A stretch of DNA of 64,000 nucleotides from Macrobrachium rosenbergii (taxonomy: Eukaryota; Arthropoda; Malacostraca; Decapoda; Palaemonidae), in the NCBI RefSeq assembly GCF_040412425.1, contig NC_089781.1, positions 51,164,727 through 51,228,726 of the forward strand. The letters are read 5' to 3'. The notes under the pieces were generated by a model. That model was not told the DNA's origin. It saw only the letters and a program-made list of their open reading frames with translations, and ran no database searches. Both the position numbers and the translations under genes were made by a program. Of this stretch, positions 6,215-63,705 are shown in pieces. Within the stretch, counting starts at the first letter, position 1. Each line of letters begins with the position of its first letter.

Positions 6215-6248
6215 TGCAGGAAATGGAGATAAGCCCCTTCCTCCCCTA

Positions 6249-7430: not shown

Positions 7431-7559
7431 CTCCCCTACTTCCGACAACCTGAGGAAATGGAGATAAGCCCCTCCCCCTCCCAATTTCCCACACACTGGG
7501 GAAATGTGGATAAGCTTCTCCCCCTTCCCTACTTCCGACACCCTGAGGAAATGGAGATA

Positions 7560-33954: not shown

Positions 33955-36900
33955 ATAAAGGAACTCCACAGAGTCATTCAACATATCATCATCATCTACG
34001 GCATCTGGATGATTCAGTTTCTGGTAAACCCTCATTCCTTCATCCAGGGAGTCATTCAACATACCATTATCATCTGCGGTATGTGGAGGATTTGAGCCTG
34101 GTAAAACCTCATGCCTCATCCATGGAGTCATTCAATACATCATTATCATCTATGGCATCTGAGGATCTGGTTTCTGGTAAACCCTCATGTTCATCCAGGA
34201 GTCATTCAACATACTATTATCATCTGCAGTATGTAGAGGATTTGATGTCTGGTAACACCAACTGCCTCCTCCATGGAGTCATCTGATATATCCTCATCAT
34301 CTACGGAATCTGGAGATTCGGTGTCTGGTAAACCCTATGTCTTCATCCAGAGTCATTCAACATACCATTATCATTACGGTGTCTGAGGATTCGGTGTCTG
34401 CAAACCTCCATGGAGTCATACAACATATCATCATCGCGGACGGTATCTGGAGAATTCGGTGTTTGGTAAACCCTTCCACTTCACCCTTGGAGTCGTTCAA
34501 CATATCATTATCTATGGCATCTGGAGGATTCAGTGTCTGGTAAACACTCATGTCTTAATCCTTGGAGTCATTCAACATACCATTATCATCTACGGAATTT
34601 GGAGGATTCGATGTATGGTAAACCTTCGTGCTTCATCCATTTAGTCATTCAACATATCATCATCATCTTACAAGCAGCATCTGGAGGATTCCATGTCTGG
34701 TAAACCTCCTGCTTCATCCATTGAGTCATCTCTACATATCATTATCATCTACGGCACCTTGTAGGATTCGGTGTCTGTAAACCCTCATGTCTTCATCCAG
34801 GGAGTCATTAAACATACCATCATCATGGATGGTGTCTGGAGGATTAGGTGTCTGGTAAACCTCCCCAGCTTCATTCATGGAGTCATTCAACATATCATTA
34901 TCATCTATGGCACTGAGGATTCGTGTCTGGTAAACTCAAATCTTTCACCCAGGGAGTCATTCAACATACAATTATCATCTACAGTATTCATGATTCGGTG
35001 TCTGGTAAACCCTCCCATTTCATACAGGAGTCCTACAAATATCATCATCTACGGCATCTTCAGATGTATCTGGTTAACACTATGTCTTCATCCAGGTATT
35101 CTTCAACACACCATTATCATCTATGGCATCTGAGGATTCGAACTGCAACCATCCTGTTTCACCCATGCTGTCATTCAACATATCATCAACATCTACGGCA
35201 TCGGGAGAATTCGGTTTCTGGTTAACCCTCCTGCCTTATCCAAGGAGTCATTCAACGTATCATCATCATCTATGGCATCTGGAGGATTCGGTTTCTGGTA
35301 AACACCATGTCTTCATCCAGAGCTGTTCAACATGCTACTCATTATCATCTGCAGTATGTGGAGGATTCTGATGTCTGGCAAACCTACTCGCCTCATCCAT
35401 GGAGTCGTCCAATATGCTCATCATTCACGGATTCCGGAGATTCGGTGTCTGCAACCCTTATGTCTTCAAGTCCAGAGAGTCGTTCAACATACCATCTATG
35501 CACTCTGGGAAGGATTTGGGGTCTGGTAATCATTTCTTCATTCAGGAATATCTGTTAGTACTATTATCATCTACAGTATCTGAGGATCTGGAGTCTGTTA
35601 AACCTCTTGCTTAACCCATGGAGTCATCTTTGAGATATCATCATCATCCACAGCATCTGAGAATTCCGGCGTTTGTGAACCCTGCTGTTTACAAGGCGGA
35701 GTCATTCAACATATCATCATGATCACGGCGTCTGGAGATCTTTAAATAATACACTTGCTTCATCCATGGAGTCACTGAAGATATCATAATCATGTATGGT
35801 ATCTGAGTGATTCGGTGTCTGTTAAACCCTCACATGTCTTCATCCAGGCGAGTCATTCAACATACCATTATCTACTACGGTATCTGGGGGATTTGGTGTC
35901 TGGTAAACCCTCATGTCTTCATCCAAGGAGTCATTCAACATACCATTATCATCTACGGTATCTGGAGGATTCAGTGTCTGATAAACCTTCATGTCTTCGA
36001 GCCATTCAACATAACATCATCCTCTATGGTACCCGGAGGATTCGGTGTCTCGTAAATCCTCCTGCTTCATCCATAAATATTGAATATACCATCATCCTCT
36101 ACCTATGTGGAGAGGGGATTAGGTTTCTTTGTAAAAACACATGTCTTCATCCATGGAGTCGCACAACATATCTTCGTCATCTATGGCATCTGAGGATTCG
36201 GGTGTCTGGTGAACCGCCCTGTTTTTATTCATGTATTCATTCAACATATCATAATCATCTATGGCATCTGGAGGATTCGGTGTCTGGTGAATACTCATGT
36301 CTTCATCCAGGGAGCCATTCAACATACCATCATCATTTACGGTATCTGGAGGATTTGGTGTCTGGTAAACCATCCTGCTTCATCCATGGAGTCATTCAAC
36401 ATATCATAATCATCTACGGCATCTGGATGATTTGGTTTTTTGCGAACCCTCATGTCTTCATCTAGGGAGTCATTCAACATACCATTATCATCTATGGTAT
36501 CTGGAGGATTTGGTGTTTGGTAAACTCTATTGCTCATCCATGGAGTCAACAACATAGCATCATCATCTGCGTGCATGGAGGATTCGCACGGTAAACCTTT
36601 CATGTCTTCATCCATGGAATAATTCAAATACATTACCATCAACGGTATCTGGATGATTCGGTGTATGGTAAACCCTGCTGCTTCATCCATGGTTATTCAA
36701 CATAATATCATCATTTATTGCATCTGGAGGATTCGGTGTCTGGTAAACCCTCGTTTTCATCCATGGAGTCATTCAACATACAAACATCATCTACTGTATT
36801 TTGAGGATCTGGTGACTCGGTAAACCCTCGTGTTTCATCCATGGAGTCATTCACACACCATTATATACTGTGGCCCGAGTATTCGGTGTCTGATAAACCT

Positions 36901-37017
36901 GCCTGCTTCAATGTGAGTGGGATTCAACATATCATCATCATCTACAGCATCTGAGGATTCGTTGTCTGCAAACCTCATGTCATCATCCATGGAGTCATTC
37001 AACATACCATTATCATC
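33955..37017. repeat. 78-bp tandem repeat in alternating 156-bp dimers, ~39 units
   Basis: Each unit contains GAGTCATTCAACATA, ATCATCTACGG, ATCTGGAGGATTCGGTGTCT, GGTAAACC and TTCATCCA. Two unit types alternate: one with ATATCATCATCATC and a CATGTCTTCATCCAGG end, one with ATACCATTATCATC and a CTGCTTCATCCATGG end. This makes a 156-bp higher-order unit. Because 78 is a multiple of three, stop-free frames persist on both strands. On the minus strand the repeat reads as an acidic peptide with QTPNPPD and DEDM motifs, interrupted by indels. Coding capacity is unproven. Confidence 0.93.
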
Positions 37018-37096
37018 TTATAGAGGGATGAATAAATTTGTTTGTATTTCAGCATTTCCAACGTTTCTGTGAGAGAGAGAGAGAGAGAGAGAGGAG

Positions 37097-38695: not shown

Positions 38696-39968
38696 TCAAT
38701 CACGGAACCTCTTTGGGAGCAGGAGCCAGCCGAGTTCTTGATACCTGCAGAAGTGGGGCGGCTTCGACTGCTGAAGCGTCAGCGGTTTTGCTGAGCTGAT
38801 GACTTCCTTAGTGTGGCCCTTGGGACGTCCTCGACCGTGTTTCGTGATGCCGATGCGTTCATCCGAGGTCTTGTTTTGTGGAGGAATTCTGGGATGCCTG
38901 CCGGTTTCCTTCCGAGTTCCACTGTCCATCACGAAGGCTGCCTTTATCCTATCGACAGAAACCCAGTCTTCCTGCCCGTGGATGTTGACGAGGTAGGCCT
39001 TGGAGGCCCTACTGACGACACGGTTTGGGCCTCTGTATGGTCTGGTCAAAGGTGGGTGGTGGGCGTTGATCTTGATGAAGATGTATGTGCAGGAATCCAG
39101 GCCTTTTGGGCTGTAGACGTGGGTCCTGTCCACGAAAGTCTTTCGGCAAGGTGCGAACCTCATTGCTATTTCCCTCAGCCTTGGAAGGGGCATATCTGCG
39201 ATGTCTGGCTCCATGGGGAAGAACTCTCCCAGTACGGCCACTGTTTTGCCATAGACTTTCTCTTCGGGAGATTCATCGCCATTTGCCCTTGGTGCAGTGC
39301 AGAGACCCAGAGGACCCAGGGGAGCTGCGCCTTCCAATTGTCGTCGGTGCAATGTGCCATCAGAGCTGCCTTCAATGAACGGTGGGTCCTTTCCACCATG
39401 CTGTTGGATGCAGGGTTATATGCTGTCGTACTGTGGAGAGTAGTCCCCATCAGGTGTGCCAGGGAGACCCAGAGCTCTGATAAGAATGCCGGGCCTCTGT
39501 CTGTAGTTATGTTGTTGTGCACACCAAAACGGCTAATCCAGCTTGACAGGAGGGCTTCTGAACAGGCGCTCGTTGATGCTTCTGTCATCGGGGTTGCTTC
39601 TGGCCATCTTGTGGAACGGTCTATGACCATCAGGAGGTATCTGGCGCCCCTGATTGTGGCAGAGGCTCTACGACGTCTACAGGGATGTGCCCAAAACGCT
39701 GATGTGGTTGAGGGAAATCTCTGATGCCTGATTCCATGTGCCGGATGATTTTACTCGTCTGGCACGGTATACAGTTCTTCGCCCACTCTCGAACATCCTT
39801 CCTGATCCCGTGCCACACGAACTTTTCTGTCATCAGGTGCGCTGTTGTTCGCCTTGATGGATGGGACAGCCCTTGGATGATGTCGAATGTCTGCTTTCTC
39901 CTCGACGCAGGTATCGGGGCGCGGGCGGCCAGTACTGGTGTCGCAGAGAAGTGTTGAACTGGACCCAC
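38696..39968 (-). pseudogene. gypsy-1 integrase
   Basis: Integrase joins element cDNA to host DNA. The H2C2 zinc domain is at about 39660-39870 (HPSRRTTAHL, CIPCQTSK). The first catalytic Asp lies in FGHIPVDVVEPLP near 39680. The second frame (39175-39630) has VIDRSTRWPEA, TTDRGPAF with the second Asp, and SMVERTHRSLKAAL with the Glu, so the D,D,E triad is present. The third frame (38696-39352) holds the C-terminal part, including RPYRGPNRVV and VSVDRIKAAFV. It then ends in a basic tail (HGRGRPKGHTK) and stops 55 bp before the 3' LTR. Two or three frameshifts break what was one reading frame. Confidence 0.85.
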
Positions 39969-40450
39969 CTACTGGCATGGCTTCCCACCTCTGTGGTGAG
40001 TGCTGTGCAGTAGGCTGCTGTTTCCGGGTGCGCGTCTTGTTCCTTCGCCAGGTCCTCGTAGTCTATGTCCAGGTGGACTGAATTTATCTCAACTCTTGAT
40101 AGGGCGTTGGTCACTGGGTTCTTCTTGGCGGGGATGTAGCTAATGGCGCATCTGAACTTGGAGACAGCGGCCAGGTGTTGCTGCTGTCTTGCCGACCATG
40201 CGTCTCCTGCCCTCGTGAATGCATGCACCAACGGCTTGTGGTCTGTCAGGATGGTGAAGGGGCTGCCGTCCAAGAGGTACTGAAAGTGCCACACAGCAGT
40301 AGATTGCCAGCAGCTCCTGTCGAATGCACTGTAGTGGGTCTCCGGCAGCTTTAACTTGTGGCTGAAAAGGCCAGAGGGCTGGTGGAACTGCCTACTACCT
40401 GCTCCAGCATGGCTCAGCAAGCTTTGATGCTGCTGGTGCTGTGGTAAGTC
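39833..40450 (-). pseudogene. gypsy-1 RNase H
   Basis: The minus-strand frame ending at 39833 has THYSAFDRS, FTILTDHKPLVHAF and KNPVTNALSRVE, the usual landmarks of the Ty3/gypsy RNase H (NPVADALSR normally, here NALSR). The domain removes the RNA template. It overlaps the start of the integrase zinc domain in the next frame, and joins the RT near 40430 across another frameshift. The first catalytic Asp box is not clear because of that break. Confidence 0.8.
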
Positions 40451-41483
40451 TCAGGGGGCAGTGGGGTCGTGATGTGTTAAGGTGGTGGCTCTGGCGAGGG
40501 CTGCCTTCGTCTGTTCAGCGTGTGCTGCTGCGGAGCTGCCTATGTCAGAGCTTTCGGCTTCCCCTTCGGTACTCTGGTTAGGGGATACATGATGCGGGTG
40601 ATGTCCAGCACTGACTGACGGTAGTAGTTGACTATGCCAAGGAATTCCTACAGGGACTTGATGGATTTTGGTGTTGGAAACTTCTTCACTGCGTCCACTT
40701 TGGAGGCCATAGGGCGGACACCTGCCGGAGAGATCTCGTGGCCCAGGAAAAATACCTTTTCTGCTCTGAAGGTACACTTGTCGAACCTGACAACCAAACC
40801 ATTCTCCTGCAGGCGCTTCAGCACAGCCCGGACATGGCACAGGTGTTCCTCCGGGGGACCTGGAGAAGATCAGGATGTCGTCTGTGTAGCAAACGCAGAA
40901 GGGTAGGTCCTCCAAGATGGTGTCCATAAGGCATTGGAATGTGGCCCCGGCGTTACTGAGGCCAAAGATGGAACAGGACAAGGTATATGTCCCGAACGCC
41001 GTAATGATGGCTGTCTTCGGAACGTCGTCGGGGTGCACTGGTACCTGAAAATAAGACTTGAGCAAATCCATTTTTGTAAATACTTTGGCCCTGTGCAGGG
41101 CGCCTGTTAGGTCCTGTATGTTTGGCAAGGGATAGTGGTCTGGTGTCATTATTAGGTTCAGCTGACAATAGTCCCCACAGGGCCTCCAGGAGTTGTCTCG
41201 TTTCCTCACCATGTGGAGTGGGTACGCCCACGGACTCAATGCCTTCCTGCAGATTCCCATCCATTCCATCTCGGCAAAGGCTCGTTTAGTGTCTTGGAGT
41301 TTTTTTGGGTGGCAAGCTGTGGAATTTGGCATGTGTTGGCGGGCCTGTCGTGGTGATATGGTGATGGATGCCGTGCTTGGCCTGGGCTCCCGGCAACTGA
41401 AGCAGCTCTGGCCTGAAGGCGTCTAGGAACTCGTGGAGGAGGGTGCTATATTTGTTCGAAGAGATGGAGCAGACGACGGGCAT
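40451..41483 (-). pseudogene. gypsy-1 reverse transcriptase
   Basis: The frame 41286-41483 holds the pre-RT linker with HHITTTGPPTHAKFHSLPP. The next frame (40451-41332) contains the RT: WRPCGDYCQLN, DHYPLPNIQDL, FTKMDLLKSYFQVPVHPDD with the first catalytic Asp, FGLSNAGATFQCLMD, and the catalytic box YTDDILIFS near 40885-40903. After that box the sequence drifts out of frame (GGTPVPCPG onward), so the thumb is read in a different frame. The catalytic residues are intact but the protein is not continuous. Confidence 0.87.
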
Positions 41484-48903: not shown

Positions 48904-49250
48904 ATGTCAGAAGCAGAACCTTAATGCGAACCCGCGAGCATCGTCTGAACGCCGCTCTCACCAATAAAGCCAGACACGGTCAAACTTTCACCGTTCTCAT
49001 GCCAGAACATAGCATCATGGTTCCGGCGCGCAGATGCGCATTTTCGCATGGCACGCATCTCAGATGATGATACAAAATCAGACATAGTCATGATGGCGCT
49101 CCCAGAAGAAGTATTCGATAGAATCTTCCCCTGCCTGGACGCACAAGCAGACAAAGTCACATAGACTTTAAAAAACAAACTGCTGAATTCCTACTCCATG
49201 CCTGTGTCCGAGAGAGCACAGCGTGCTTTCGACTTGTTATCCTAGCCTCT
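48904..49250 (+). pseudogene. gypsy-2 gag, N-terminal part
   Basis: ATG at 48904 (MSEAEP) is at the same relative place as the gypsy-1 gag start. Frames further on contain PFSCQNIASWFRRAD, DIVMMALPEEVFDRIFPCLD and SMPVSERAQRAFDLL, each matching gypsy-1 gag in order. At least two frame changes and a TAG after DKVT interrupt it. It is cut at 49250 by the BEL/Pao LTR, next to the CCTCT duplication. Gag would encapsidate the RNA; this copy is dead. Confidence 0.8.
49246..49250. repeat. Target-site duplication of the BEL/Pao element, left copy (CCTCT)
   Basis: CCTCT immediately precedes the TGTAC start of the 5' LTR. The same five bases immediately follow the 3' LTR at 63701-63705. Five bp is usual for this superfamily. 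Confidence 0.8.
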
Positions 49251-50312
49251 TGTACAAAAATATTAATACAAATATAACATTTTTCAAGAATTTGAATCTC
49301 AAACTTTATTTAAATTAAATAATTAATCAATTGAGTTAAGTAACCCCTTGAATTTGTACGTACATGGACTTCCATGTTTCCACGGTCCTTGGATACGTCT
49401 TGGATACGTCACTAAATGACATACGTCAGACCTAACAAGGACGCGGAAGAGGCTCAGGTAAGACAGTACCAAAGTACCGCTACTACCCTTCACTACCATC
49501 ACCGTCGCCAGAGACAAGACGGACGGTTATAGGTTACGAAAAATTTTGAGGATTCAATAGTTGGCTGGTCGGGTGATCAATTCCTACTTTCTGCACTTTT
49601 TATTGATGGATCGTTTCCCGGAGGTACTGATGTAGTAATGCAGCTCAAGAGACTTCCTGTTGAATCACGAGCCTTCGTAAGGTGTACGAAATTGAACATG
49701 AGAAAATAAGCTCATCGTGTGGGGGTTCGAGGTGAAGGACAATACATAGTGGAGGACGACGGCTGAGTTCCAAGATCTTCGCTGCTGGCTACCTAACTCG
49801 GTTAAGTTCATGTAATGCAGATCCAAGGGTGTTATGTGTACTTAGTCGGCGATAGTGTACTATACACTTAAAGATCATTGAGGCAAGGCCCTTCATTCAT
49901 TTTTCAACCTTCAGTGACGTGATTAACGTATCGAGTATAAAATCGTTTGAGATTTAAGTTTCTTGTTTTAGCCTCGGTACCCTTTTTTTAATATTAAGTG
50001 TGTTTGGGATGGCAACCAGTCGCTCCCTATAACTTGCCTTTTTATCCCCTGTAGGTTGGAGTTTCGCTAAAAGGGGTGGAACCTTGGAGTGAAGAGAGGT
50101 CAAGAGCTATCGTCTTGGAACTAACAGGACACTTTCGTCAATGTAGACTGGGGATTTATTACTTAATTTCATGAAGCTATAGCCTTCAATAACTTCAGTC
50201 TTGACTCAAGTTTTATATTAAAGTATTTAATTTTCATAAATTTTCTCTTGTCCTCATTAGTCTTTCCATCCTAAAAGTTACTCAAGTAATTTTTTCGAAA
50301 AATTTTAGCGAA
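49251..50312 (+). repeat. BEL-2 5' LTR
   Basis: Starts TGTACAAAAATATTAATAC and ends TTTTAGCGAA next to the primer-binding site. It has an 11-bp tandem duplication (TTGGATACGTC twice near 49389-49410) that the 3' LTR lacks. It does not end in the usual CA. Confidence 0.88.
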
Positions 50313-50330
50313 TGGCGCCCAACGTGGGGC
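50313..50330 (+). other. BEL-2 primer-binding site, tRNA-Lys type
   Basis: TGGCGCCCAACGTGGGGC is exactly complementary to the 3' end of tRNA-Lys(CUU) including CCA, as known for several retroviruses. It begins directly after the LTR. Confidence 0.88.
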
Positions 50331-50537: not shown

Positions 50538-51442
50538 ATGTCTGCTAGTGAGTTAGAGCAACTTGATTCTACACAAGAATCCTCGCTTCTCGTAGCTTTA
50601 AGAGAGTCGGATGATGACTGTAAAGTACTTGTTAGTATCCGGAGTGGCAAGAGACAGTCTGTAACGAAGACTTTAAAGAGTATTGAGAAGGGTCCACTGG
50701 ATATTATTAAATGTGAATTTTATCTTGACAAGTTGGGCGATCTTTTAACGGAGTTAAATTCGCTTGATGAGAAGATAAATAGTCATATGCTTCATTCTAG
50801 ACTTTGGAGTTCGGTTCAGTATCACCAACAGGCGGAAGTTGATGAAAAGTACTCGGACGGTATAAGGTTGGCGATTAAACGGTTGTCTAGGGAATTAACT
50901 CGCTTGTCAAAGTCTGCTGTAGCAGCAGCAACCCCTACTCCTTCCACACCGCAGGGAGTACATCATTCTTATCATAAAATAACTTTGCCTAGCATCATAG
51001 AACTACCTTATTTTGATGGAACCCCGCAGCTTATCATAAATTTGTTAATTCGTTTGAAAGTCTTCTTTCCAAATACGACCTTTCCTCGTTTGAGCAATTT
51101 TCTTATCTCTCAAAACAGTTAACGGGGCCCGCAAAGAAACTGGTAGATTCCCTTGCCTTGAAAGATTTGAATTATGAATCTGCTAAGAAACTACTCAATG
51201 AAGCTTTTAGTGGTAAGCTTAGTCAACAGTACTCGGTAATTAAGGGTTTGTGCAATTTGAGACTTGATCCTAATGCTAGGGATGGCTATCAGTGGATAAG
51301 TGAAGCTCGTGTCTTAGAGGAACAGGTTCGATCGGTAGATATAAAGGGAGATTTGTTTGTTCAATATTTTCTTTGGGAAAGTCTGTGTGATGGATTTAAA
51401 GTCAGCTTGTCTCTGTTACAAACAAGCCGAAACCATCTTTGA
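50538..51442 (+). CDS. BEL-2 gag (DUF1759-like), one frameshift
   Basis: ATG at 50538, about 207 bp after the primer-binding site, starts MSASELEQLDSTQESS. The acidic, helical N-terminus is followed by a Ser/Thr/Pro linker, then KITLPSIIELPYFDGTP, the LPK-ELP-FDG signature of BEL/Pao gag. A single base change near 51040 shifts the frame; the sequence continues as a helical capsid-like domain (KDLNYESAKKLLNEAFSGK) to 51442, where a second shift occurs. Gag forms the intracellular particle. Only this copy of gag exists in the element, since it lies outside the duplicated unit. Confidence 0.85.
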
Positions 51443-51451
51443 AAGAAATTT

Positions 51452-52132
51452 TTGGATAACCTATTTGAAGCAAATAATAGATTTATGGACCTTCAGTCCA
51501 ACCTGTCTGAGCAAACGAAAGGGAATTTAGTTAAGCAATCGTCAAATGCTGTATCAGTCTCTGTTACTTCCAAAGATTCTTCAAAGTCGTTGTGCCCTGG
51601 TTCGAAATTTAAGGTGACCTGCCCACTGTGTTCCCATGATAGTGTAATTCCAAATGACCATAAATTGAGTGAGTGTATGAAATACCCCAGTCCTGGTAGT
51701 AAATGCGAGAAACTTAAATCTATTGGGGGCTGCTATAAATGTGGTTTAACTTCACATAATGCCAAAGTTTGTCATTTTAAATTTAATCGGCCGTGTATGA
51801 AATATAATTTATTTCACATGTCTTATTTATGCCTTGGTTTAGCTAATAAGGGTGCTAATAAGGTTAAAGACGAAATGGGCACTAATGCAAATAAAGCTAA
51901 TGTTCCTAAACATACTGATACCAAAGTAGTTAAAACTACTACAAACGGAATGCTAACGATGTCTACTGGCTTAGAGGCATTTAATGATGTAATTCTCCCC
52001 ACTGGGACTGTATATGTAGAGAATTTGGGTCGTAAAATTCCATGGAGTGTGTTTAAGGATCTTGGTTCCCAAATAACCTTAGTAAAAGGGTCTCGGAAGA
52101 CATTCCCAACTGCTCAGTCGTTGATAAAGTGA
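51452..52132 (+). CDS. BEL-2 gag zinc knuckle and protease start
   Basis: This continues gag-pol after a frameshift near 51440. A Cys-rich region includes CPLCSHD, CEKLKSIGG and CYKCGLTSHNAKVCHFK, the last fitting a CCHC zinc knuckle that would bind RNA. Further on, FKDLGSQITLV corresponds to the protease active site; the usual D-S/T-G-S is D-L-G-S here. The frame ends at 52132 where a shift leads into 52129-52557. Whether D-L-G-S is an active variant or a lesion is not known. Confidence 0.8.
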   Translation: MDNLFEANNRFMDLQSNLSEQTKGNLVKQSSNAVSVSVTSKDSSKSLCPGSKFKVTCPLCSHDSVIPNDHKLSECMKYPSPGSKCEKLKSIGGCYKCGLTSHNAKVCHFKFNRPCMKYNLFHMSYLCLGLANKGANKVKDEMGTNANKANVPKHTDTKVVKTTTNGMLTMSTGLEAFNDVILPTGTVYVENLGRKIPWSVFKDLGSQITLVKGSRKTFPTAQSLIK

Positions 52133-53451
52133 ATCTCAAGATTCAAGGAATTAATTTGGTCAAAAATCACGATACTTACATTGTAGAGTTTCCCGTTCAT
52201 GTTCCTGGCCAGGGAAAGCAGTTATTAAGGGCACTTTGTGTAGACGAAATTAATTCAAAATTTGTTGCACTTGGATTGAAGAAATTAGCAGACGCCCTGG
52301 TTGAGAAGGGTTATACCCTGGCAGATAAGCACATAGATTCTGATACTATAGACGATTTTACAATCTTGCTTGGTAGCGATCAAAGCCATATTTTCCCACT
52401 TGCACAGAAAGACTTCGGTTGCAATGGTAAATGTCCCTCTACTTTTTATGAAACTTCGTCGGGTATAATGCTTTCTGGAAGTGCCTCTTTGTTTTTAGAG
52501 AACCTTAATTTGCTATGTATTCCATTTGATGGTAATTCTGACGGCACGTCTCTATGACTAACCGTTAATAGTAACATAAGTACTTTGCTAGTAGAGAAGG
52601 AACTTTTTGATGACCAAAAGATTAAGAATGCGACTGACGAAATCCTAGAATCAATATTCACTTCACTTATGAATACTCAAGACGACCATAGAGAATATGT
52701 TTTGACAAGTGAAAATAGTAAATTAATTGATAACATTCTTAGTGATATTCGGAGAGATCCTAAGACAGGTAGGTTAGTTGTGCCTGCTTTATGGAAGAAG
52801 GAAATACAACATTTAATGTCGCCCAACTATAATCTTGCAGTGTCAGTTCTCAATTCTCAAAAAAGAAAGCTTTCGCCTGAGAGGTTAAAGGAATACGATG
52901 CAGTTATACAGAACCAATTTGAAGATGGAGTAATTGAACGTATTGCAGATCATCCCTCATTTCTTAGAGAAAATCCAGATGTATCATTTCTAGCTCATAA
53001 TGCCGTGTTCCGAAATAACTCTAACACGACGAAGTGTAGGGTTGTCTTTCTATCGAATTTAAGTGAGAGGAAAAATGAGAAATGTCTTTCCCATAATCAG
53101 TGTTCCATGGCGGGAGCTAATTTGAATAATAAAATGCAGATTTCAACACTACTACTAAGGTTTGACAAGTATTTGCTGACTTATGATTTGAAAAAAGCCT
53201 TTTTACAGCTTTTTCTTAGAGAAGAGGACACGAGAAAGTTACTTTTTCTATGGTTTAATGGTATTTCTAAGAACGATTTCTCAATTGTTGGCTATCGTTT
53301 CCGACGAGTGCCTTTTGGAATGAGATATTCTCCATTTTTGTTAATGATAGCTCTCTATTACACATTGATCCATAATGTAACTGATGATGATGATGAAGAG
53401 ACTCAGAGTATAAAAGGTGTTTGTATAACCTTTCTTACATGGATAACTTAG
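52129..53451 (+). CDS. BEL-2 protease C-terminal half and RT fingers/palm, with in-frame UGA
   Basis: One frame runs from 52129 to 53451 with a single TGA at 52555-52557, in the context TGACTA. Before the stop is the second half of a BEL/Pao aspartic protease (IDDFTILLGSDQSHIFPLA). After it the RT begins: SPERLKEYDAVIQNQFEDG, then LLTYDLKKAFLQLFLREED with the first RT catalytic Asp, and RRVPFGMRYSPFLL. At 53430 the frame shifts just before the YxDD box. UGA-CUA is a known leaky-stop context, so read-through is possible, but a plain nonsense mutation is the simpler explanation. Confidence 0.8.
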
Positions 53452-53834
53452 CCATAACTTCAAATGCGGATAATATTTTGTTTAAGGCATTAAATGTTTC
53501 TGTATCGACGTTCCGAGAATTTGGATTCGAATTACAAGAGTTTTGTACGAATTCTGTACCCTTAAGAGAACAATTAAATAAGTTTGAACACTGCACTGAA
53601 TCAGAATCAAAGCTTTTTGGCCTAATTTGGAATACAGAGAATGATACGATTAAAACTCGTAAACTTGAATTAAACCCTAAAGCTAATACAAAAAGGTTAA
53701 TTTTAAGTACTATTCATTCCAATTATGATCCTTTTGGGTTTTCAATACCAGTTTTAAACAGAAGCAAATTGTTTATGCATTCCTTGCAGAATGACAAGGA
53801 TATGGGATGGGATTTGGATGGGATACGCCGTTAA
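53421..53834 (+). CDS. BEL-2 RT palm end and connection (unit 1)
   Basis: The frame contains NLSYMDNLAITS, where the RT catalytic YxDD box should be; it reads YMDN, so the second Asp is Asn. The RT thumb and connection follow: ESKLFGLIWNTENDTI, KRLILSTIHSNYDPFGF and GWD. The tandem duplication starts at 53454, inside the codons just after YMDN, so this catalytic box is present once in the element while everything after it occurs four times. The frame ends near 53834 at a lesion found in all four units. Confidence 0.83.
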   Translation: MYNLSYMDNLAITSNADNILFKALNVSVSTFREFGFELQEFCTNSVPLREQLNKFEHCTESESKLFGLIWNTENDTIKTRKLELNPKANTKRLILSTIHSNYDPFGFSIPVLNRSKLFMHSLQNDKDMGWDLDGIRR

Positions 53835-54420
53835 GCAGCGAGCTGATGAAAGAATGGTCGAAGATTGCCAGACAGGTTAACAAGAGCTCAGAAATTGTAC
53901 TACCTCGTTCTGTCGGTAATCGTTGTGACGAGTACGATTTGTTGGTCTATACGGACGCAAGTAAAGAATTGTTAGGCTGTGCTTTATATTTGGTGGCTGT
54001 CAATTCAGCAGACACCAAGCTGATTTTGCAAAGAATTCTGTGCTTTGTAAGAAATTAAGAACAAAGTCTATTCCTGTACTGGAATTGATATCTGTACATT
54101 TGGGAGTAAGGACGGCCGTAGATGTAGCTGAACAGCTAATGAATGCTGTTGTTGCTATTCGGATTCGTAATATTTATTGCTTCACAGATTCTATGATTGT
54201 TCTAAGTTGGATTAAGTCTAAGGAGTGTGAGTTTGGCAAAATAGATAGGAAGCAAGTGATGGTTAACAATAGGCTAAATGATATGTCGAATCTTTGTTCT
54301 AAGCGAACAGTGATTTTCGACCATATAGGTGGTGATGAGAACCCTAGTGACTGTCTTACTCGGTGTGTTTCAGAGAAAATGCTTCGTAGCACGCTCTTTT
54401 TAACAGGTCCAAAATTTCTA
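53807..54420 (+). CDS. BEL-2 RNase H (unit 1)
   Basis: LLVYTDASKELLGCALYL provides the first catalytic Asp, SIPVLELISVHLGV the Glu, CFTDSMIVLSWI the second Asp, and GGDENPSDCLTR the terminal motif, so the expected catalytic residues are visible. A one-base loss near 54030 (GATTTTGCAAAG; the other units have GATTTTGGCAAA) breaks the frame in unit 1 only. The frame then continues without a stop into the integrase, because unit 1 has one more T (CTCTTTTTAACAGG) than units 2-4. Confidence 0.85.
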
Positions 54421-54429
54421 GATTCTCCA

Positions 54430-55500
54430 TCAGAGTGCAGAGTGATTGCTCCTCATCCCGGTGCAAAGCCGCCTTCCGTGAGTTGCTCTGTTAGGACAAA
54501 TTTCATTTTGAATTCTGAACCACTTATACCGTTAAACAAGTTTTCGTCCTTTAGTAAAGCGGTCAAGGTTTTGAGTATTGTCTTCCTCTTTGTTACTAAG
54601 TTGAAACAAAGGTTAAGACTGACTAAGAATATACCAGAGAATACCTCAGACGAACAGAATGAAACTGCTCGTAGCACCATTCACCTTTTAGTACATGCAC
54701 AAAGGCTGCCTTTCCCCATGTTTATGATATGCTGGCTACAGGTAATTTTTCAGAACCCCTTATATCACAGTTGAATTTATTTCGTGATGAAAGTGGGCTT
54801 ATTAGGGTACAAAGTAAGTTAAGTAGATTAAAAGCTTCTTATGATGAGAGGTGTCCGATACTATTGGGAAAAAATTGCCCTGTGGCTAGAAGTATAATTT
54901 GGGATACCCATGTAAAACTGCGACACGCTGGAATTTACAAAACTTTAGGTTTATTCAGGAAAGGGTTTTGGATTATTAATGGCTTTGTGGTTGTAAAGAA
55001 GGTTTTAAAAGGCTGTTTGATATGTAAAAGGTTGAATGCAAGAACTGTCAAAATTAATCAAAATGCATATAGAGATTTCAGAATAAACCCAGAGGCTATT
55101 CCGTTTAGGAATATTTGCATCGACCATTGTGGACCTTTCTTGGTTAAGGACAGAAACAAACAAAACTATAAGGTATATGTGCTGGTCATATCCTGTTTTT
55201 GGTCTAGAGCAATTAATCTGGTTGTATGCAGGTTGATTGATAAAAACTCCTTTCTTAGGGCATTACAAATGCATATTTTTGAGTACAGTTTCCCTTCTTT
55301 AATAGTTAGTGATAATGGAAGCCCAATAGTGGCGGGAGTAGAGGAAACTATCTCCTATCTAAATGATTGAGAGACCATTGACTTCTTAAGATCGCATAAT
55401 ATTAAGTCTTTAAAATTTCATCCATTCCCTGCTAATGCACATAAATTAGGTGGGTTTGTTGAAACTATGGTTAAGCAAGTAAAAGGATAGTTACTTCGAG
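54430..55500 (+). CDS. BEL-2 integrase, zinc domain and core (unit 1)
   Basis: The frame from 54040 runs to 54774, and 54729-55370 holds the H2C2 domain (HVKLRHAGIYKTLG, CLICKRLNA), the first catalytic Asp (FRNICIDHCGPFLV) and the second (LIVSDNGSPI). After ISYLND comes TGA, and beyond it in the same frame ETIDFLRSHNIKSLKFHP and KLGGFVETMVKQVK with the catalytic Glu. This TGA is present in all four units. Unit 1 alone has TACAGTTTCC where the other three have TACGGTTTCC. The C-terminal domain is absent here because the next unit begins at 55569. Confidence 0.85.
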
Positions 55501-55568
55501 CATTCGAAATAACATTTTGGATTATGATGATTTTCAATTCTTGATTGCTGAGGTTAAAATGCTCGTAA

Positions 55569-57681
55569 ATAACTTCAAATGCGGATAATATTTTGTTTAA
55601 GGCATTAAATGTTTCTGTATCGACGTTCCGAGAATTTGGATTCGAATTACAAGAGTTTTGTACGAATTCTGTACCCTTAAGAGAACAATTAAATAAGTTT
55701 GAACACTGCACTGAAGCAGAATCCAAAATTTTGGCCTAATTTGGAATACAGAGAATGATACGATTAAAACTCGTAAACTTGAATTAAACCCTAAAGCTAA
55801 TACAAAAAGGTTAATTTTAAGTACTATTCATTCCAATTATGATCCTTTTGGGTTTTCAATACCAGTTTTAAACAGAAGCAAATTGTTTATGCATTCCTTG
55901 CAGAATGACAAGGATATGGGATGGGATTTGGATGGGATACGCCGTTAAGCAGCGAGCTGATGAAAGAATGGTCGAAGATTGCCAGACAGGTTAACAAGAG
56001 CTCAGAAATTGTACTACCTCGTTCTGTCGGTAATCGTTGTGACGAGTACGATTTGTTGGTCTATACGGACGCAAGTAAAGAATTGTTAGGCTGTGCTTTA
56101 TATTTGGTGGCTGTCAATTCAGCAGACACCAAGCTGATTTTGGCAAAGAATTCTGTGCTTTGTAAGAAATTAAGAACAAAGTCTATTCCTGTACTGGAAT
56201 TGATATCTGTACATTTGGGAGTAAGGACGGCCGTAGATGTAGCTGAACAGCTAATGAATGCTGTTGTTGCTATTCGGATTCGTAATATTTATTGCTTCAC
56301 AGATTCTATGATTGTTCTAAGTTGGATTAAGTCTAAGGAGTGTGAGTTTGGCAAAATAGATAGGAAGCAAGTGATGGTTAACAATAGGCTAAATGATATG
56401 TCGAATCTTTGTTCTAAGCGAACAGTGATTTTCGACCATATAGGTGGTGATGAGAACCCTAGTGACTGTCTTACTCGGTGTGTTTCAGAGAAAATGCTTC
56501 GTAGCACGCTCTTTTAACAGGTCCAAAATTTCTAGATTCTCCATCAGAGTGCAGAGTGATTGCTCCTCATCCCGGTGCAAAGCCGCCTTCCGTGAGTTGC
56601 TCTGTTAGGACAAATTTCATTTTGAATTCTGAACCACTTATACCGTTAAACAAGTTTTCGTCCTTTAGTAAAGCGGTCAAGGTTTTGAGTATTGTCTTCC
56701 TCTTTGTTACTAAGTTGAAACAAAGGTTAAGACTGACTAAGAATATACCAGAGAATACCTCAGACGAACAGAATGAAACTGCTCGTAGCACCATTCACCT
56801 TTTAGTACATGCACAAAAGGCTGCCTTTCCCCATGTTTATGATATGCTGGCTACAGGTAATTTTTCAGAACCCCTTATATCACAGTTGAATTTATTTCGT
56901 GATGAAAGTGGGCTTATTAGGGTACAAAGTAAGTTAAGTAGATTAAAAGCTTCTTATGATGAGAGGTGTCCGATACTATTGGGAAAAAATTGCCCTGTGG
57001 CTAGAAGTATAATTTGGGATACCCATGTAAAACTGCGACACGCTGGAATTTACAAAACTTTAGGTTTATTCAGGAAAGGGTTTTGGATTATTAATGGCTT
57101 TGTGGTTGTAAAGAAGGTTTTAAAGGCTGTTTGATATGTAAAAGGTTGAATGCAAGAACTGTCAAAATTAATCAAAATGCATATAGAGATTTCAGAATAA
57201 ACCCAGAGGCTATTCCGTTTAGGAATATTTGCATCGACCATTGTGGACCTTTCTTGGTTAAGGACAGAAACAAACAAAACTATAAGGTATATGTGCTGGT
57301 CATATCCTGTTTTTGGTCTAGAGCAATTAATCTGGTTGTATGCAGGTTGATTGATAAAAACTCCTTTCTTAGGGCATTACAAATGCATATTTTTGAGTAC
57401 GGTTTCCCTTCTTTAATAGTTAGTGATAATGGAAGCCCAATAGTGGCGGGAGTAGAGGAAACTATCTCCTATCTAAATGATTGAGAGACCATTGACTTCT
57501 TAAGATCGCATAATATTAAGTCTTTAAAATTTCATCCATTCCCTGCTAATGCACATAAATTAGGTGGGTTTGTTGAAACTATGGTTAAGCAAGTAAAAAG
57601 GATAGTTACTTGAGCATTGAAATAACATTTTGGATTATGATGATTTTCAATTCTTGATTGCTGAGGTTAAAATGCTCGTAA
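55569..57681 (+). repeat. BEL-2 internal tandem unit 2 (2113 bp)
   Basis: Near-identical to unit 1. Private differences include CTGAAGCAGAATCCAAAATT near 55715. RNase H is open from 55921 to 56517 and is undamaged by the unit-1 deletion, but stops at LRSTLF because of a shortened T-run. The integrase is open from 56556 to 57134 and 57131 to 57484, split by a shortened A-run (TTTTAAAGG). It cannot be translated from its own start; it lacks the YxDD box. Confidence 0.95.
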
Positions 57682-59795
57682 ATAACTTCAAATGCGGATA
57701 ATATTTTGTTTAAGGCATTAAATGTTTCTGTATCGACGTTCCGAGAATTTGGATTCGAATTACAAGAGTTTTGTACGAATTCTGTACCCTTAAGAGAACA
57801 ATTAAATAAGTTTGAACACTGCACTGAATCAGAATCAAAGCTTTTGGCCTAATTTGGAATACAGAGAATGATACGATTAAAACTCGTAAACTTGAATTAA
57901 ACCCTAAAAGCTAATACAAAAAGGTTAATTTTAAGTACTATTCATTCCAATTATGATCCTTTTGGGTTTTCAATACCAGTTTTAAACAGAAGCAAATTGT
58001 TTATGCATTCCTTGCAGAATGACAAGGATATGGGATGGGATTTGGATGGGATACGCCGTTAAGCAGCGAGCTGATGAAAGAATGGTCGAAGATTGCCAGA
58101 CAGGTTAACAAGAGCTCAGAAATTGTACTACCTCGTTCTGTCGGTAATCGTTGTGACGAGTACGATTTGTTGGTCTATCGGACGCAAGTAAAGAATTGTT
58201 AGGCTGTGCTTTATATTTGGTGGCTGTCAATTCAGCAGACACCAAGCTGATTTTGGCAAAAAGAATTCTGTGCTTTGTAAGAAATTAAGAACAAAGTCTA
58301 TTCCTGTACTGGAATTGATATCTGTACATTTGGGAGTAAGGACGGCCGTAGATGTAGCTGAACAGCTAATGAATGCTGTTGTTGCTATTCGGATTCGTAA
58401 TATTTATTGCTTCACAGATTCTATGATTGTTCTAAGTTGGATTAAGTCTAAGGAGTGTGAGTTTGGCAAAATAGATAGGAAGCAAGTGATGGTTAACAAT
58501 AGGCTAAATGATATGTCGAATCTTTGTTCTAGCGAACAGTGATTTTCGACCATATAGGTGGTGATGAGAACCCTAGTGACTGTCTTACTCGGTGTGTTTC
58601 AGAGAAAATGCTTCGTAGCACGCTCTTTTAACAGGTCCAAAATTTCTAGATTCTCCATCAGAGTGCAGAGTGATTGCTCCTCATCCCGGTGCAAAGCCGC
58701 CTTCCGTGAGTTGCTCTGTTAGGACAAATTTCATTTGAATTCTGAACCACTTATACCGTTAAACAAGTTTTCGTCCTTTAGTAAAGCGGTCAAGGTTTTG
58801 AGTATTGTCTTCCTCTTTGTTACTAAGTTGAAACAAAGGTTAAGACTGACTAAGAATATACCAGAGAATACCTCAGACGAACAGAATGAAACTGCTCGTA
58901 GCACCATTCACCTTTAGTACATGCACAAAGGCTGCCTTTCCCCATGTTTATGATATGCTGGCTACAGGTAATTTTTCAGAACCCCTTATATCACAGTTGA
59001 ATTTATTTCGTGATGAAAGTGGGCTTATTAGGGTACAAAGTAAGTTAAGTAGATTAAAAGCTTCTTATGATGAGAGGTGTCCGATACTATTGGGAAAAAA
59101 TTGCCCTGTGGCTAGAAGTATAATTTGGGATACCCATGTAAAACTGCGACACGCTGGAATTTACAAAACTTTAGGTTTATTCAGGAAAGGGTTTTGGATT
59201 ATTAATGGCTTTGTGGTTGTAAAGAAGGTTTTAAAAGGCTGTTTGATATGTAAAAGGTTGAATGCAAGAACTGTCAAAATTAATCAAAATGCATATAGAG
59301 ATTTCAGAATAAACCCAGAGGCTATTCCGTTTAGGAATATTTGCATCGACCATTGTGGACCTTTCTTGGTTAAGGACAGAAACAAACAAAACTATAAGGT
59401 ATATGTGCTGGTCATATCCTGTTTTTGGTCTAGAGCAATTAATCTGGTTGTATGCAGGTTGATTGATAAAAACTCCTTTCTTAGGGCATTACAAATGCAT
59501 ATTTTTGAGTACGGTTTCCCTTCTTTAATAGTTAGTGATAATGGAAGCCCAATAGTGGCGGGAGTAGAGGAAACTATCTCCTATCTAAATGATTGAGAGA
59601 CCATTGACTTCTTAAGATCGCATAATATTAAGTCTTTAAAATTTCATCCATTCCCTGCTAATGCACATAAATTAGGTGGGTTTGTTGAAACTATGGTTAA
59701 GCAAGTAAAAAGGATAGTTACTTCGAGCATTCGAAATAACATTTTGGATTATGATGATTTTCAATTCTTGATTGCTGAGGTTAAAATGCTCGTAA
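57682..59795 (+). repeat. BEL-2 internal tandem unit 3 (2114 bp)
   Basis: Near-identical to the others. Private changes include GGTCTATCGGACGC (one A lost near 58179), GGCAAAAAGAATTC near 58255 and a T lost in CACCTTTAG near 58912. Longest open piece is the integrase at 58886-59596, where zinc domain, first Asp and second Asp are read in one frame. Confidence 0.95.
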
Positions 59796-61912
59796 ATAAC
59801 TTCAAATGCGGATAATATTTTGTTTAAGGCATTAAATGTTTCTGTATCGACGTTCCGAGAATTTGGATTCGAATTACAAGAGTTTTGTATGAATTCTGTA
59901 CCCTTTAAGAGAACAATTAAATAAGTTTGAACACTGCACTGAATCAGAATCAAAGCTTTTTGGCCTAATTTGGAATACAGAGAATGATACGATTAAAACT
60001 CGTAAACTTGAATTAAACCCTAAAGCTAATACAAAAGGTTAATTTTAAGTACTATTCATTCCAATTATGATCCTTTTGGGTTTTCAATACCAGTTTTAAA
60101 CAGAAGCAAATTGTTTATGCATTCCTTGCAGAATGACAAGGATATGGGATGGGATTTGGATGGGATACGCCGTTAAACAGCGAGCTGATGAAAGAATGGT
60201 CGAAGATTGCCAGACAGGTTAACAAGAGCTCAGAAATTGTACTACCTCGTTCTGTCGGTAATCGTTGTGACGAAGTACGATTTGTTGGTCTATACGGACG
60301 CAAGTAAAGAATTGTTAGGCTGTGCTTTATATTTGGTGGCTGTCAATTCAGCAGACACCAAGCTGATTTTGGCAAAGAATTCTGTGCTTTGTAAGAAATT
60401 AAGAACAAAGTCTATTCCTGTACTGGAATTGATATCTGTACATTTGGGAGTAAGGACGGCCGTAGATGTAGCTGAACAGCTAATGAATGCTGTTGTTGCT
60501 ATTCGGATTCGTAATATTTATTGCTTCACAGATTCTATGATTGTTCTAAGTTGGATTAAGTCTAAGGAGTGTGAGTTTGGCAAAATAGATAGGAAGCAAG
60601 TGATGGTTAACAATAGGCTAAATGATATGTCGAATCTTTGTTCTAAGCGAACAGTGATTTTCGACCATATAGGTGGTGATGAGAACCCTAGTGACTGTCT
60701 TACTCGGTGTGTTTCAGAGAAAATGCTTCGTAGCACGCTCTTTTAACAGGTCCAAAATTTCTAGATTCTCCATCAGAGTGCAGAGTGATTGCTCCTCATC
60801 CCGGTGCAAAGCCGCCTTCCGTGAGTTGCTCTGTTAGGACAAATTTCATTTTGAATTCTGAACCACTTATACCGTTAAACAAGTTTTCGTCCTTTAGTAA
60901 AGCGGTCAAGGTTTTGAGTATTGTCTTCCTCTTTGTTACTAAGTTGAAACAAAGGTTAAGACTGACTAAGAATATACCAGAGAATACCTCAGACGAACAG
61001 AATGAAACTGCTCGTAGCACCATTCACCTTTTAGTACATGCACAAAAGGCTGCCTTTCCCCATGTTTATGATATGCTGGCTACAGGTAATTTTTCAGAAC
61101 CCCCTTATATCACAGTTGAATTTATTTCGTGATGAAAGTGGGCTTATTAGGAGTACAAAGTAAGTTAAGTAGATTAAAAGCTTCTTATGATGAGAGGTGT
61201 CCGATACTATTGGGAAAAAATTGCCCTGTGGCTAGAAGTATAATTTGGGATACCCATGTAAAACTGCGACACGCTGGAATTTACAAAACTTTAGGTTTAT
61301 TCAGGAAAGGGTTTTGGATTATTAATGGCTTTGTGGTTGTAAAGAAGGTTTTAAAGGCTGTTTGATATGTAAAAGGTTGAATGCAAGAACTGTCAAAATT
61401 AATCAAAATGCATATAGAGATTTCAGAATAAACCCAGAGGCTATTCCGTTTAGGAATATTTGCATCGACCATTGTGGACCTTTCTTGGTTAAGGACAGAA
61501 ACAAACAAAACTATAAGGTATATGTGCTGGTCATATCCTGTTTTGGTCTAGAGCAATTAATCTGGTTGTATGCAGGTTGATTGATAAAAACTCCTTTCTT
61601 AGGGCATTACAAATGCATATTTTTGAGTACGGTTTCCCTTCTTTAATAGTTAGTGATAATGGAAGCCCAATAGTGGCGGGAGTAGAGAGAAACTATCTCT
61701 ATCTAAATGATTGAGAGACCATTGACTTCTTAAGATCGCATAATATTAAGTCTTTAAAATTTCATCCATTCCCTGCTAATGCACATAAATTAGGTGGGTT
61801 TGTTGAAACTATGGTTAAGCAAGTAAAAGGATAGTTACTTCGAGCATTCGAAATAACATTTTGGATTATGATGATTTTCAATTCTTGATTGCTGAGGTTA
61901 AAATGCTCGTAA
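59796..61912 (+). repeat. BEL-2 internal tandem unit 4 (2117 bp)
   Basis: Near-identical. RNase H is open at 60207-60746. The integrase is split at 61132, 61365 and 61580 by small indels (CCCCCTTATATC, TTAGGAGTAC, TTTTGGTC). This is the only unit that continues into the integrase C-terminal part, at 61861-62546. Confidence 0.95.
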
Positions 61913-62118
61913 ATAAAAGACCAATCGCCTTCAGAAATGCTCTAAATAAATTAGATTTTGACAACAGCGTGCCTGTCCCTTTGACTCCAGAGATGATAGT
62001 GAAGGGGTATGAAGTACCTTGTGTGAGTATAATTCCTGAGCTTAATACTTCAGATCAGGACGACTCTTGGGGTGTCTCTGATGATATATTCGGCAATAAT
62101 CAAGAGGCAGTTTTATGA
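61861..62118 (+). CDS. BEL-2 integrase, post-core segment
   Basis: The frame follows the integrase Glu helix of unit 4 with LDYDDFQFLIAEVKMLVNKR and PIAFRNALNKLDFDN, then PLTPEMIVKGYEVP, the N-KRP-...-LTP region that follows the catalytic core in BEL/Pao integrases. The duplication breakpoint (ATAA at 61913) falls inside this segment, so it is complete only here. It overlaps the next frame by four bases. Confidence 0.82.
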   Translation: MDYDDFQFLIAEVKMLVNKRPIAFRNALNKLDFDNSVPVPLTPEMIVKGYEVPCVSIIPELNTSDQDDSWGVSDDIFGNNQEAVL

Positions 62119-62546
62119 AAGTGAAAGCTAACTTGGAAAAAATCTATCAGGGCGAATTTACTGCTACGTTGTTCAGTCAAGCAACGGATAGAAAAAATAG
62201 GTATGGTAAGAAATCTCATACTGAATTAAGGGTAGGGGATTTAGTGAGTATAAAAACAGGTTTTATAAAGCCTTTTGCTTACCCGCTAGGTGTCATCGTA
62301 CAAATTGAAAAGAATGACCTGGATGAAGTAACAAGCGCTAGTGTACGTAAATCCATCGGAGAAATTGTAAGACGACACGTTGATAACTTGATATTCCTAA
62401 CAGATACTTCCATCAACGTTGACAGTAACTCTGTTTCTCCTGAATTTGTTCCTGAAACCAGTACAGTTTCCTACAAGTCTGAGAGATCAGCTGCTCGTAA
62501 GTGTCGAGAACTGAACAAGGCACTAATTGAGCAACACAAGGTTTAA
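62115..62546 (+). CDS. BEL-2 integrase C-terminal domain (DUF5641-like)
   Basis: The 143-residue frame contains YQGEFTATLFSQ, ELRVGDLVSIKTG, PFAYPLGVIVQIEKNDLDEV, ASVRKSIGEIVRRHVDNLIF, which is the GDLV...YPLG...VR...GE...RRHV pattern of the C-terminal domain in BEL/Pao integrases. It ends with a basic tail and stop 108 bp before the 3' LTR. It is read one base off from the preceding frame. This is the end of the polyprotein. Confidence 0.85.
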   Translation: MKVKANLEKIYQGEFTATLFSQATDRKNRYGKKSHTELRVGDLVSIKTGFIKPFAYPLGVIVQIEKNDLDEVTSASVRKSIGEIVRRHVDNLIFLTDTSINVDSNSVSPEFVPETSTVSYKSERSAARKCRELNKALIEQHKV

Positions 62547-62654: not shown

Positions 62655-63700
62655 CGCACAAAAATATTAATACAAATATAACATTTTTCAAGAATTTGAA
62701 TCTCAAACTTTATTTAAATTAAATAATTAATCAACTGAGTTAAGTAACCCCTTGAATTTGTACGTACATGGACTTCCATGTTTCCACGGTCCTTGGATAC
62801 GTCACTAAATGACATACGTCAGACCTAACAAGGACGCGGAAGAAGCTCGGGTAAGACAGTACCAAAGTACCGCTACTACCCTTCACTACCACCACCGTCG
62901 CCAGAGACAAGACGGACGGTTATCGGTTACGAAAAATTTTGAGGATTCAATAGTTGGCTGGTCGGGTGATCAATTCCTACTTTCTGCACTTTTTATTGAT
63001 GGATCGTTTCCCGGAGGTACTGATGTAGTAATGCAGCTCAAGAGACTTCCTGTTGAATCACGAGCCTTCGTAAGGTGTACGAAATTGAACATGAGAAAAT
63101 AAGCTCATCGTGTGGGGTTCAAGGTGAAGGACAATACATGGTGGAGGACGACGGCTGAGTTCCAAGATCTTCGCTGCTGGCTACCTAACTCGGTTAAGTT
63201 CATGTAATGCAGATCCAAGGGGTGTTATGTGTACTTAGTCGGCGATAGTGTACTATACACTTAAAGATCATTGAGGCAAGGCCCTTCATTCATTTTCAAC
63301 CTTCAGTGACGTGATTAACGTATCAGTATAAAATCGTTTGAGATTTAAGTTTCTTGTTTTAGCCTCGGTACCCTTTTTTTAATATTAAGTGTGTTTGGGA
63401 TGGCAACCAGTCGCTCCCTATAACTTGCCTTTTTATCCCCTGTAGGTTGGAGTTTCGCTAAAAGGGTGGAACCTTGGAGTGAAGAGAGGTCAAGAGCTAT
63501 CGTCTTGGAACTAACAGGACACTTTCGTCAATGTAGACTGGGGATTTATTACTTAATTTCATGAAGCTATAGCCTTCAATAACTTGTCTTGACTCAAGTT
63601 TTATATTAAAGTATTTAATTTTTATCAATTTTCTCTTGTCCTCATTAGTCTTTCCATCCTAAAAGTTACTCAAGTAATTTTTTCGAAAAATTTTATCGAC
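62655..63700 (+). repeat. BEL-2 3' LTR
   Basis: Matches the 5' LTR along its length. The start reads CGCAC against TGTAC in the 5' LTR, two transitions. The end reads TTTTATCGAC against TTTTAGCGAA. Followed directly by CCTCT. Confidence 0.88.
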
Positions 63701-63705
63701 CCTCT
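63701..63705. repeat. Target-site duplication of the BEL/Pao element, right copy (CCTCT)
   Basis: Identical to 49246-49250. It lies at the first base of the resumed gypsy-2 gag. Confidence 0.8.

What the first reader, a model, noticed from the sequence alone, without database searches (positions are those of the whole stretch)
53454..61912. A retrotransposon carrying four head-to-tail copies of its own RT-connection/RNase H/integrase segment
The 2115, 2113, 2114 and 2117-bp units begin at ATAACTTCAAATGCGG at 53454, 55569, 57682 and 59796. The element is otherwise complete, with LTRs and a target duplication. The duplicated unit starts directly after the RT YxDD box and ends inside the integrase before its C-terminal domain, so RT palm and integrase C-terminus stay single-copy while RNase H and the integrase core are four-fold. 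Internal tandem amplification of a pol segment inside a bounded LTR element is unusual. It could arise by unequal exchange, by template switching during reverse transcription, or be an assembly artefact.
Basis: seen in the sequence. Interest (0 to 1): 0.9.

Follow-up and report, generated by a model that had tools for sequence, protein, structure and literature searches.

The report
Four-fold repeat inside a prawn retrotransposon
A dead jumping gene in what looks like a freshwater prawn genome had a 2.1-kb piece of itself repeated four times in a row long after it landed, most likely by chromosomal repair or recombination errors; it looks like a satellite repeat at its very start rather than a new kind of element.

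Summary
In detail: four head-to-tail units of 2,115, 2,113, 2,114 and 2,117 bp lie inside one bounded BEL/Pao element (5-bp target duplication CCTCT). All three junctions are identical, with 4 bp of microhomology (ATAA). In the host genome (3.18 Gb, probably Macrobrachium rosenbergii) the junction sequence, allowing 3 mismatches, occurs 3 times, all here. Six other family copies that I fetched carry one unit or part of one. The LTRs differ by 10 substitutions in 1,041 sites, the units by 1-3 (or 2-6 with another aligner) per 2.1 kb. Eleven substitutions private to this insertion are common to all four units, against 4 polarised and 3 unpolarised unit-specific ones. The amplification is thus much younger than the insertion, or the units were homogenised. 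This disfavours template switching during reverse transcription and favours chromosomal duplication plus unequal exchange. Each junction shifts the reading frame into a stop, so the array cannot encode extra RNase H or integrase domains. Short indels are in excess in the array, so the consensus is noisy and the number four is unproven without spanning reads. A related element on C46 forms a separate, older tandem array. This is a young retrotransposon-derived tandem repeat, a known kind.

The parts
49246..49250 (.). left target-site duplication CCTCT
   Evidence: flanks joined at it keep one gag-like frame
49251..50312 (+). 5' LTR
50313..50330 (+). probable primer binding site just inside the 5' LTR (position read by eye; tRNA not assigned)
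   Evidence: sequence
50538..52132 (+). gag region in broken frames; DUF1759 in the open stretch 51017-51439; Cys-His stretch after it
52558..53451 (+). reverse transcriptase palm, single copy
   Evidence: RVT_1 E=5.5e-4 (20.1 bits, cut-off 29.6); 15 proteins, one of them (P0008) the window's own
53436..53447 (+). YMDN box of the RT
53454..55568 (+). unit 1 (RT connection / Peptidase_A17, RNase H, integrase zinc finger and core)
55569..57681 (+). unit 2
57682..59795 (+). unit 3
59796..61912 (+). unit 4
61913..62546 (+). integrase C-terminal part, single copy (DUF5641 20.6 bits, cut-off 23.1)
62655..63700 (+). 3' LTR
63701..63705 (.). right target-site duplication CCTCT

Best explanation
A BEL/Pao element inserted as a normal single-unit copy into the gag-like frame of another retroelement (insertion shown; single-unit state inferred). 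It then decayed for most of its life (shown by the LTR differences and by private substitutions common to all units). Late in that life, one break or fork-slippage event joined two points 2.11 kb apart at 4 bp of microhomology, giving a tandem pair (inferred). Once 2.1 kb of near-identical sequence stood in tandem, unequal sister-chromatid exchange or gene conversion raised it to four and kept it uniform (inferred). The array is non-coding and is a nascent satellite-like repeat.
For: Global alignment: 1-3 substitutions per unit pair of 2,106-2,110 sites, against 10 in 1,041 for the LTR pair; Fisher p=4e-5 for two independent pairs, 4/4,214. With BLAST counts p=4e-4 (7/4,216) and 0.016 for the most different pair (6/2,109). 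Against six other copies, 11 private substitutions are common to all four units at 1,942 scored sites, a density like the single-copy parts (17/3,089 and 4/671); only 4 polarised unit-specific changes and 3 unpolarised variable sites exist. Had the four units come in with the element, about 23-37 unit-specific changes would be expected (rates assumed); Poisson P(<=7|23)=1e-4. The junction 29-mer occurs 3 times in 3.18 Gb, all here. Six of six other copies fetched show a single or partial unit. Junctions are identical with 4-bp microhomology (chance 0.021).
Against: Homogenisation by gene conversion would give the same pattern even if the first duplication were as old as the insertion. Indels of 1-2 bp run at 8-18 per unit pair against 2-6 substitutions, so the consensus is noisy. 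An early MAFFT alignment gave 2-25 substitutions per pair, because it misplaced indels. Six other copies were fetched out of about a dozen other places, itself a lower bound. No reads were available.
Confidence: 0.74

Rival explanations
1. Copy number is an assembly product: a real junction (two units, or many) was rendered as four, or a chimeric read made the junction.
For: Indels of 1-2 bp dominate the differences between units (8-18 per pair against 2-6 substitutions), whereas unit 1 against six other copies has 3-34 such indels with 26-96 substitutions. Unit 4 has 4-7 more of them than unit 1 in each of the six comparisons. The few unit-specific substitutions could themselves be errors. 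False duplications from read errors are documented (PMC9516828, passages).
Against: An assembler needs reads holding the junction, and with only 4 bp of shared sequence the junction cannot come from repeat overlap (reasoning). The units carry mostly independent indels rather than copied ones. The LTR pair has a like density of indel events of all lengths (7/1,041 against 27/4,214, p=0.83), so the noise is not confined to the array.
Confidence: 0.18
2. Template switching during reverse transcription made the repeat before or at insertion.
For: Short-homology joins inside a pol gene are what a jumping reverse transcriptase could leave; the target duplication shows that the element came in by integration.
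Against: Units are roughly ten times more alike per site than the LTRs (about 3.5 to 6 times with the BLAST counts used). Most private substitutions in the unit, 11 of 15 polarised, are common to all four units. No second insertion with the junction was found. Later homogenisation could hide such an origin.
Confidence: 0.06
3. A selected multi-domain polyprotein with four RNase H / integrase cores.
For: Domain borders look tidy at first sight.
Against: The unit starts at codon position 1 of the RT frame and ends after the first base of an integrase codon, so each junction reads LVN-NFKCG and then stop. No open frame listed spans a unit. The junction is found only in this element.
Confidence: 0.01

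Closest known systems
CRM1TR and CRM4TR, tandem repeats derived from centromeric retrotransposons of maize (PMC3648361; abstract, passages and Discussion read)
   Same: A segment of one LTR retrotransposon becomes a head-to-tail array; the authors propose a start by illegitimate recombination and growth by gene conversion, not excluding unequal exchange.
   Different: Monomers are LTR-UTR and arrays are long; here the monomer is pol and the array sits inside its dated parent, between its LTRs.
Satellites from gag or pol segments of LTR retrotransposons, as reviewed in PMC12628747 (passages read)
   Same: The review states that satellites can arise from LTR, gag or pol domains, and lists unequal exchange among the amplifying mechanisms.
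   Different: Only four copies here; no dispersal found.
Tandem LTR retrotransposons sharing LTRs (PMC11899658; abstract and passages read)
   Same: Head-to-tail amplification within one insertion site.
   Different: There whole elements share LTRs; here the LTRs are outside the repeated unit. The C46 array of the same genome is closer to that type.
BEL/Pao elements of nematodes with a YVDN box (Cer7-Cer12, Atlas virus; PMC554778 and PMC9094657, passages read)
   Same: Asn in place of the second Asp in the RT box.
   Different: The named relatives here are mostly crustacean; no envelope gene was looked for.

Membership tests
BEL/Pao LTR retrotransposon | Domain order gag - RT - RNase H - integrase, with Pao-type profiles | tested here: met
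   Pfam DUF1759, RVT_1 (below cut-off), Peptidase_A17 (30 bits, above cut-off, in one piece; 19 bits, below, in the other), Integrase_H2C2, rve (below cut-off), DUF5641 (below cut-off), in that order. No protease profile matched between gag and RT.
BEL/Pao LTR retrotransposon | Direct LTRs and a 5-bp target duplication (5 bp as family trait recalled) | tested here: met
BEL/Pao LTR retrotransposon | RT box YV/MDD | tested here: not met
   YMDN. 79 of 84 retrieved proteins with a readable motif region also have [YF]xDN (the query profile was itself built from such proteins), and YVDN is on record in nematode BEL/Pao elements, so this marks a subgroup and does not exclude membership.
BEL/Pao LTR retrotransposon | Triple Cys-His box in gag | tested here: inconclusive
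   Cys/His-rich stretch in 51443-52132 seen by eye; no profile matched
Retrotransposon-derived tandem repeat | Monomer is a segment of an identifiable retrotransposon, head to tail | tested here: met
Retrotransposon-derived tandem repeat | Monomers more alike than expected from the age of the parent | tested here: met
Satellite DNA | Long array or several loci | tested here: not met
   Four units; junction found only here
Tandem LTR retrotransposon | Repeated unit includes an LTR | tested here: not met
   LTRs lie outside the repeat

The most novel reading that the evidence does not exclude
A satellite caught at birth: a four-copy, 2.1-kb array still enclosed by its parent element, whose LTRs date the insertion and whose private substitutions date the amplification to the last small part of that time. 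If the copy number varies between animals, it would be a natural system for measuring how a microhomology duplication grows into an array.
Probability: 0.55. Interest if true: 0.48.

Novelty: new member of a known kind. Interest (0 to 1): 0.36.

Why it matters
How satellites start is hard to see because the first steps are overwritten. Here the founder junction, the bounded parent and an internal clock (two LTRs) are all present, so the order 'insert, decay, duplicate, expand' can be read from one locus. It is also a caution: a pol segment repeated four-fold inside an element bounded by LTRs need not mean a new coding architecture.

Tried and rejected
Rejected: a coding polyprotein (frame shift at each junction); a transposed four-unit family (junction found only here); larger homology at the breakpoints (best matches between the two 600-base surroundings 8-9 bp). 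Grouping of units by shared indels gave no usable tree: two homopolymer sites group units 1+3 against 2+4, and another places a length variant in units 2 and 3; the four substitutions are each in a single unit. The MAFFT alignment inflated substitutions by misplacing indels; searches are used instead. Viral contigs: no match to the junction; 3 stretches matched integrase patterns but none was confirmed. The PDB sequence search of the integrase piece found no match. No tRNA and no Rfam family in the window. Genome-wide searches with the LTR and with the second half of the unit did not complete, so copy counts for those parts are missing. One search is stated by the tool to be a lower bound.

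Full report
WHAT IS THERE. The repeat is real in the sequence given. The anchor 16-mer is found only at 53454, 55569, 57682 and 59796, on either strand of the window, and the four units run without a break to 61912. They lie in a bounded element: LTRs at about 49251-50312 and 62655-63700, CCTCT on both sides. With the element left out, the frame that is open to the right continues in register to the left; that frame has 3 stops in the 199 codons shown, one of them next to the insertion point. I read this as an insertion into the gag-like frame of another, itself decayed, retroelement; no intact relative of that target was compared. Pfam profiles in order along the element are DUF1759, RVT_1, Peptidase_A17, Integrase_H2C2, rve and DUF5641; RVT_1, rve and DUF5641 are below their cut-offs, and Peptidase_A17 is above in one piece and below in the other. 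This is the BEL/Pao arrangement.

ANATOMY OF THE UNIT. The unit begins two codons after the RT box, which reads YMDN, and ends after the integrase catalytic core, at LVN|KRPIAF. Frames on both sides are fixed by relatives. The start lies at codon position 1 and the end after the first base of a codon, so each junction changes frame and meets a stop at the sixth codon after LVN. The breakpoints share 4 bp, ATAA; among 200,000 random pairs of points in the two single-copy parts 2.1% share 4 or more. All three junctions are identical. An in-frame TGA late in the integrase frame ends the open frames of units 1, 3 and 4, and the alignment shows no difference there in unit 2. It is not among the private substitutions, so it may be a family trait and I draw nothing from it.

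WHOSE GENOME. The window is C41:51164727-51228726 of an assembly of 3.18 Gb in 78 contigs. Contig C1 is 78,432,394 bases long, the same length as the contig of a protein that NCBI names Macrobrachium rosenbergii (P0126). The host name is an inference from that match. Of the 120 proteins listed (132 found; only 7,998 candidates scored), 11 bear a caridean prawn name: six M. rosenbergii, two M. nipponense, three Palaemon carinicauda. Other names are a nematode (Toxocara) and a Bacteroidota MAG; the rest are unnamed or hypothetical.

OTHER COPIES. One search lists 24 matches to the first kilobase of the unit (a lower bound). Four are in the window; the other 20 rows fall in about a dozen places. 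No other two matches that cover the same part of the query stand 2.1 kb apart. I fetched six of those places and the C46 region. Each of the six has one unit or part of one: L009 and L014 lack the end of the unit, L010, L011 and L012 are broken up or interrupted within it, and L013 runs through. The junction 29-mer, with up to 3 mismatches, occurs 3 times in the genome, all in this element; the reversed control pattern 0 times.

ORDER OF EVENTS. Global alignment gives 1-3 substitutions per unit pair of 2,106-2,110 sites, and 10 in 1,041 for the LTR pair. Fisher p is 4e-5 for 4/4,214 against 10/1,041, and 0.0015 for the most different pair, 3/2,107. BLAST alignment gives 2-6 per unit pair, with p=4e-4 for 7/4,216 and 0.016 for 6/2,109. 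Indel events of all lengths have a like density in both (27/4,214 and 7/1,041, p=0.83; one of the LTR ones is 11 bp). Polarised against six other copies (positions near gaps masked, at least 3 copies readable and unanimous, all four units readable: 1,942 of 2,115 sites), 11 substitutions are private to this insertion and common to all four units; 4 are in single units (unit 1: one, unit 2: two, of which one lies in a messy stretch, unit 4: one), and 3 more sites vary among units but could not be polarised. The single-copy parts carry 17 private substitutions in 3,089 sites and 4 in 671. In the LTRs, 5 changes fall on the 5' copy, 4 on the 3' copy, 1 is unpolarised and 4 are common to both, at 980 sites, with an 80% majority of at least 3 other LTR stretches as ancestral state. 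Had the array come in with the element, 23 (if pol gained 0.3% since insertion) to 37 (if 0.48%, the LTR value) unit-specific changes would be expected; these rates are my assumptions. Poisson P(<=7|23)=1e-4 and P(<=4|23)=1.4e-6. So the amplification is late, or the units have been homogenised since. Both are chromosomal processes.

IS IT AN ARTEFACT? Differences between units are mostly 1-2-base indels, many in homopolymers: 8-18 per pair, the most between units 3 and 4. Between much older sequences the numbers are no higher as a rule: unit 1 against six other copies (L009 to L014 in order) has 3, 10, 8, 12, 5 and 34 such indels with 28, 49, 26, 48, 96 and 75 substitutions, and unit 4 has 8, 14, 14, 16, 12 and 40. 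The excess over substitutions among units, and in unit 4, is what a poorly polished tandem repeat looks like. An assembler can miscount units once a junction exists, but by my reasoning it cannot make a junction from 4 bp of homology without a read that holds it. I put about 0.18 on the copy number or the junction being a product of assembly.

SECOND CASE IN THE SAME GENOME. At C46:47007114-47040150 a relative (pieces about 78-85% identical to the unit) forms an older array: three LTR-to-LTR copies at offsets of about 11 kb sharing LTRs, and the first two each carry a further internal repeat of pol end plus partial LTR at an offset of about 2.7 kb. Pieces at the 11-kb offsets are 79-94% alike. 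So tandem growth inside such elements is not limited to our locus here.

PLACE AMONG KNOWN THINGS. Arrays made from pieces of LTR retrotransposons are known (PMC3648361; PMC12628747 names gag and pol as sources; PMC11899658 for LTR-sharing tandems; PMC6947457, passages seen, reviews others). In the listings of ten searches of the open library (two searches returned no paper; only titles and abstract beginnings were seen except for the papers named) I saw no report of a pol segment amplified inside a still bounded BEL/Pao element. Most subscription papers are not held, so this is weak evidence of absence. The verdict is a young member of a known kind.

Noticed in passing
53436-53447 and proteins P0010-P0129: The RT catalytic box reads YMDN instead of YxDD. 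Of 129 retrieved proteins, 84 had a readable motif region: 79 [YF]xDN, 1 [YF]xDD, 4 other, of which 3 still end in DN; the profile query was built from YxDN proteins, so the sample is biased. YVDN is on record for nematode BEL/Pao elements (PMC554778, PMC9094657, passages). Here it extends to prawn relatives, so an RT lineage seems to persist with Asn at the second Asp of the box.
   Followed up: partly
L018-L021 (C46:47007114-47040150 of the host genome): Tandem array of about 33 kb of a related element, with shared LTRs and a nested internal repeat of pol end plus partial LTR in two of its three copies.
   Followed up: partly
1933-18406: A 46-47-bp satellite-like array of about 16 kb with strongly negative GC skew, C-rich on the + strand.
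   Followed up: no
33971-37018: 78-bp repeat array of about 40 copies; 78 bp is 26 codons, and the + strand has open frames through parts of it.
   Followed up: no
38696-41422, minus strand: Open pieces resembling another retroelement pol (RT, RNase H, integrase-like text seen by eye; no profile search made).
   Followed up: no
L011 (C41:51112000-51121900): Of the six copies fetched, the one most like this element lies about 100 kb upstream on the same contig, and its unit is interrupted by about 3.3 kb.
   Followed up: partly
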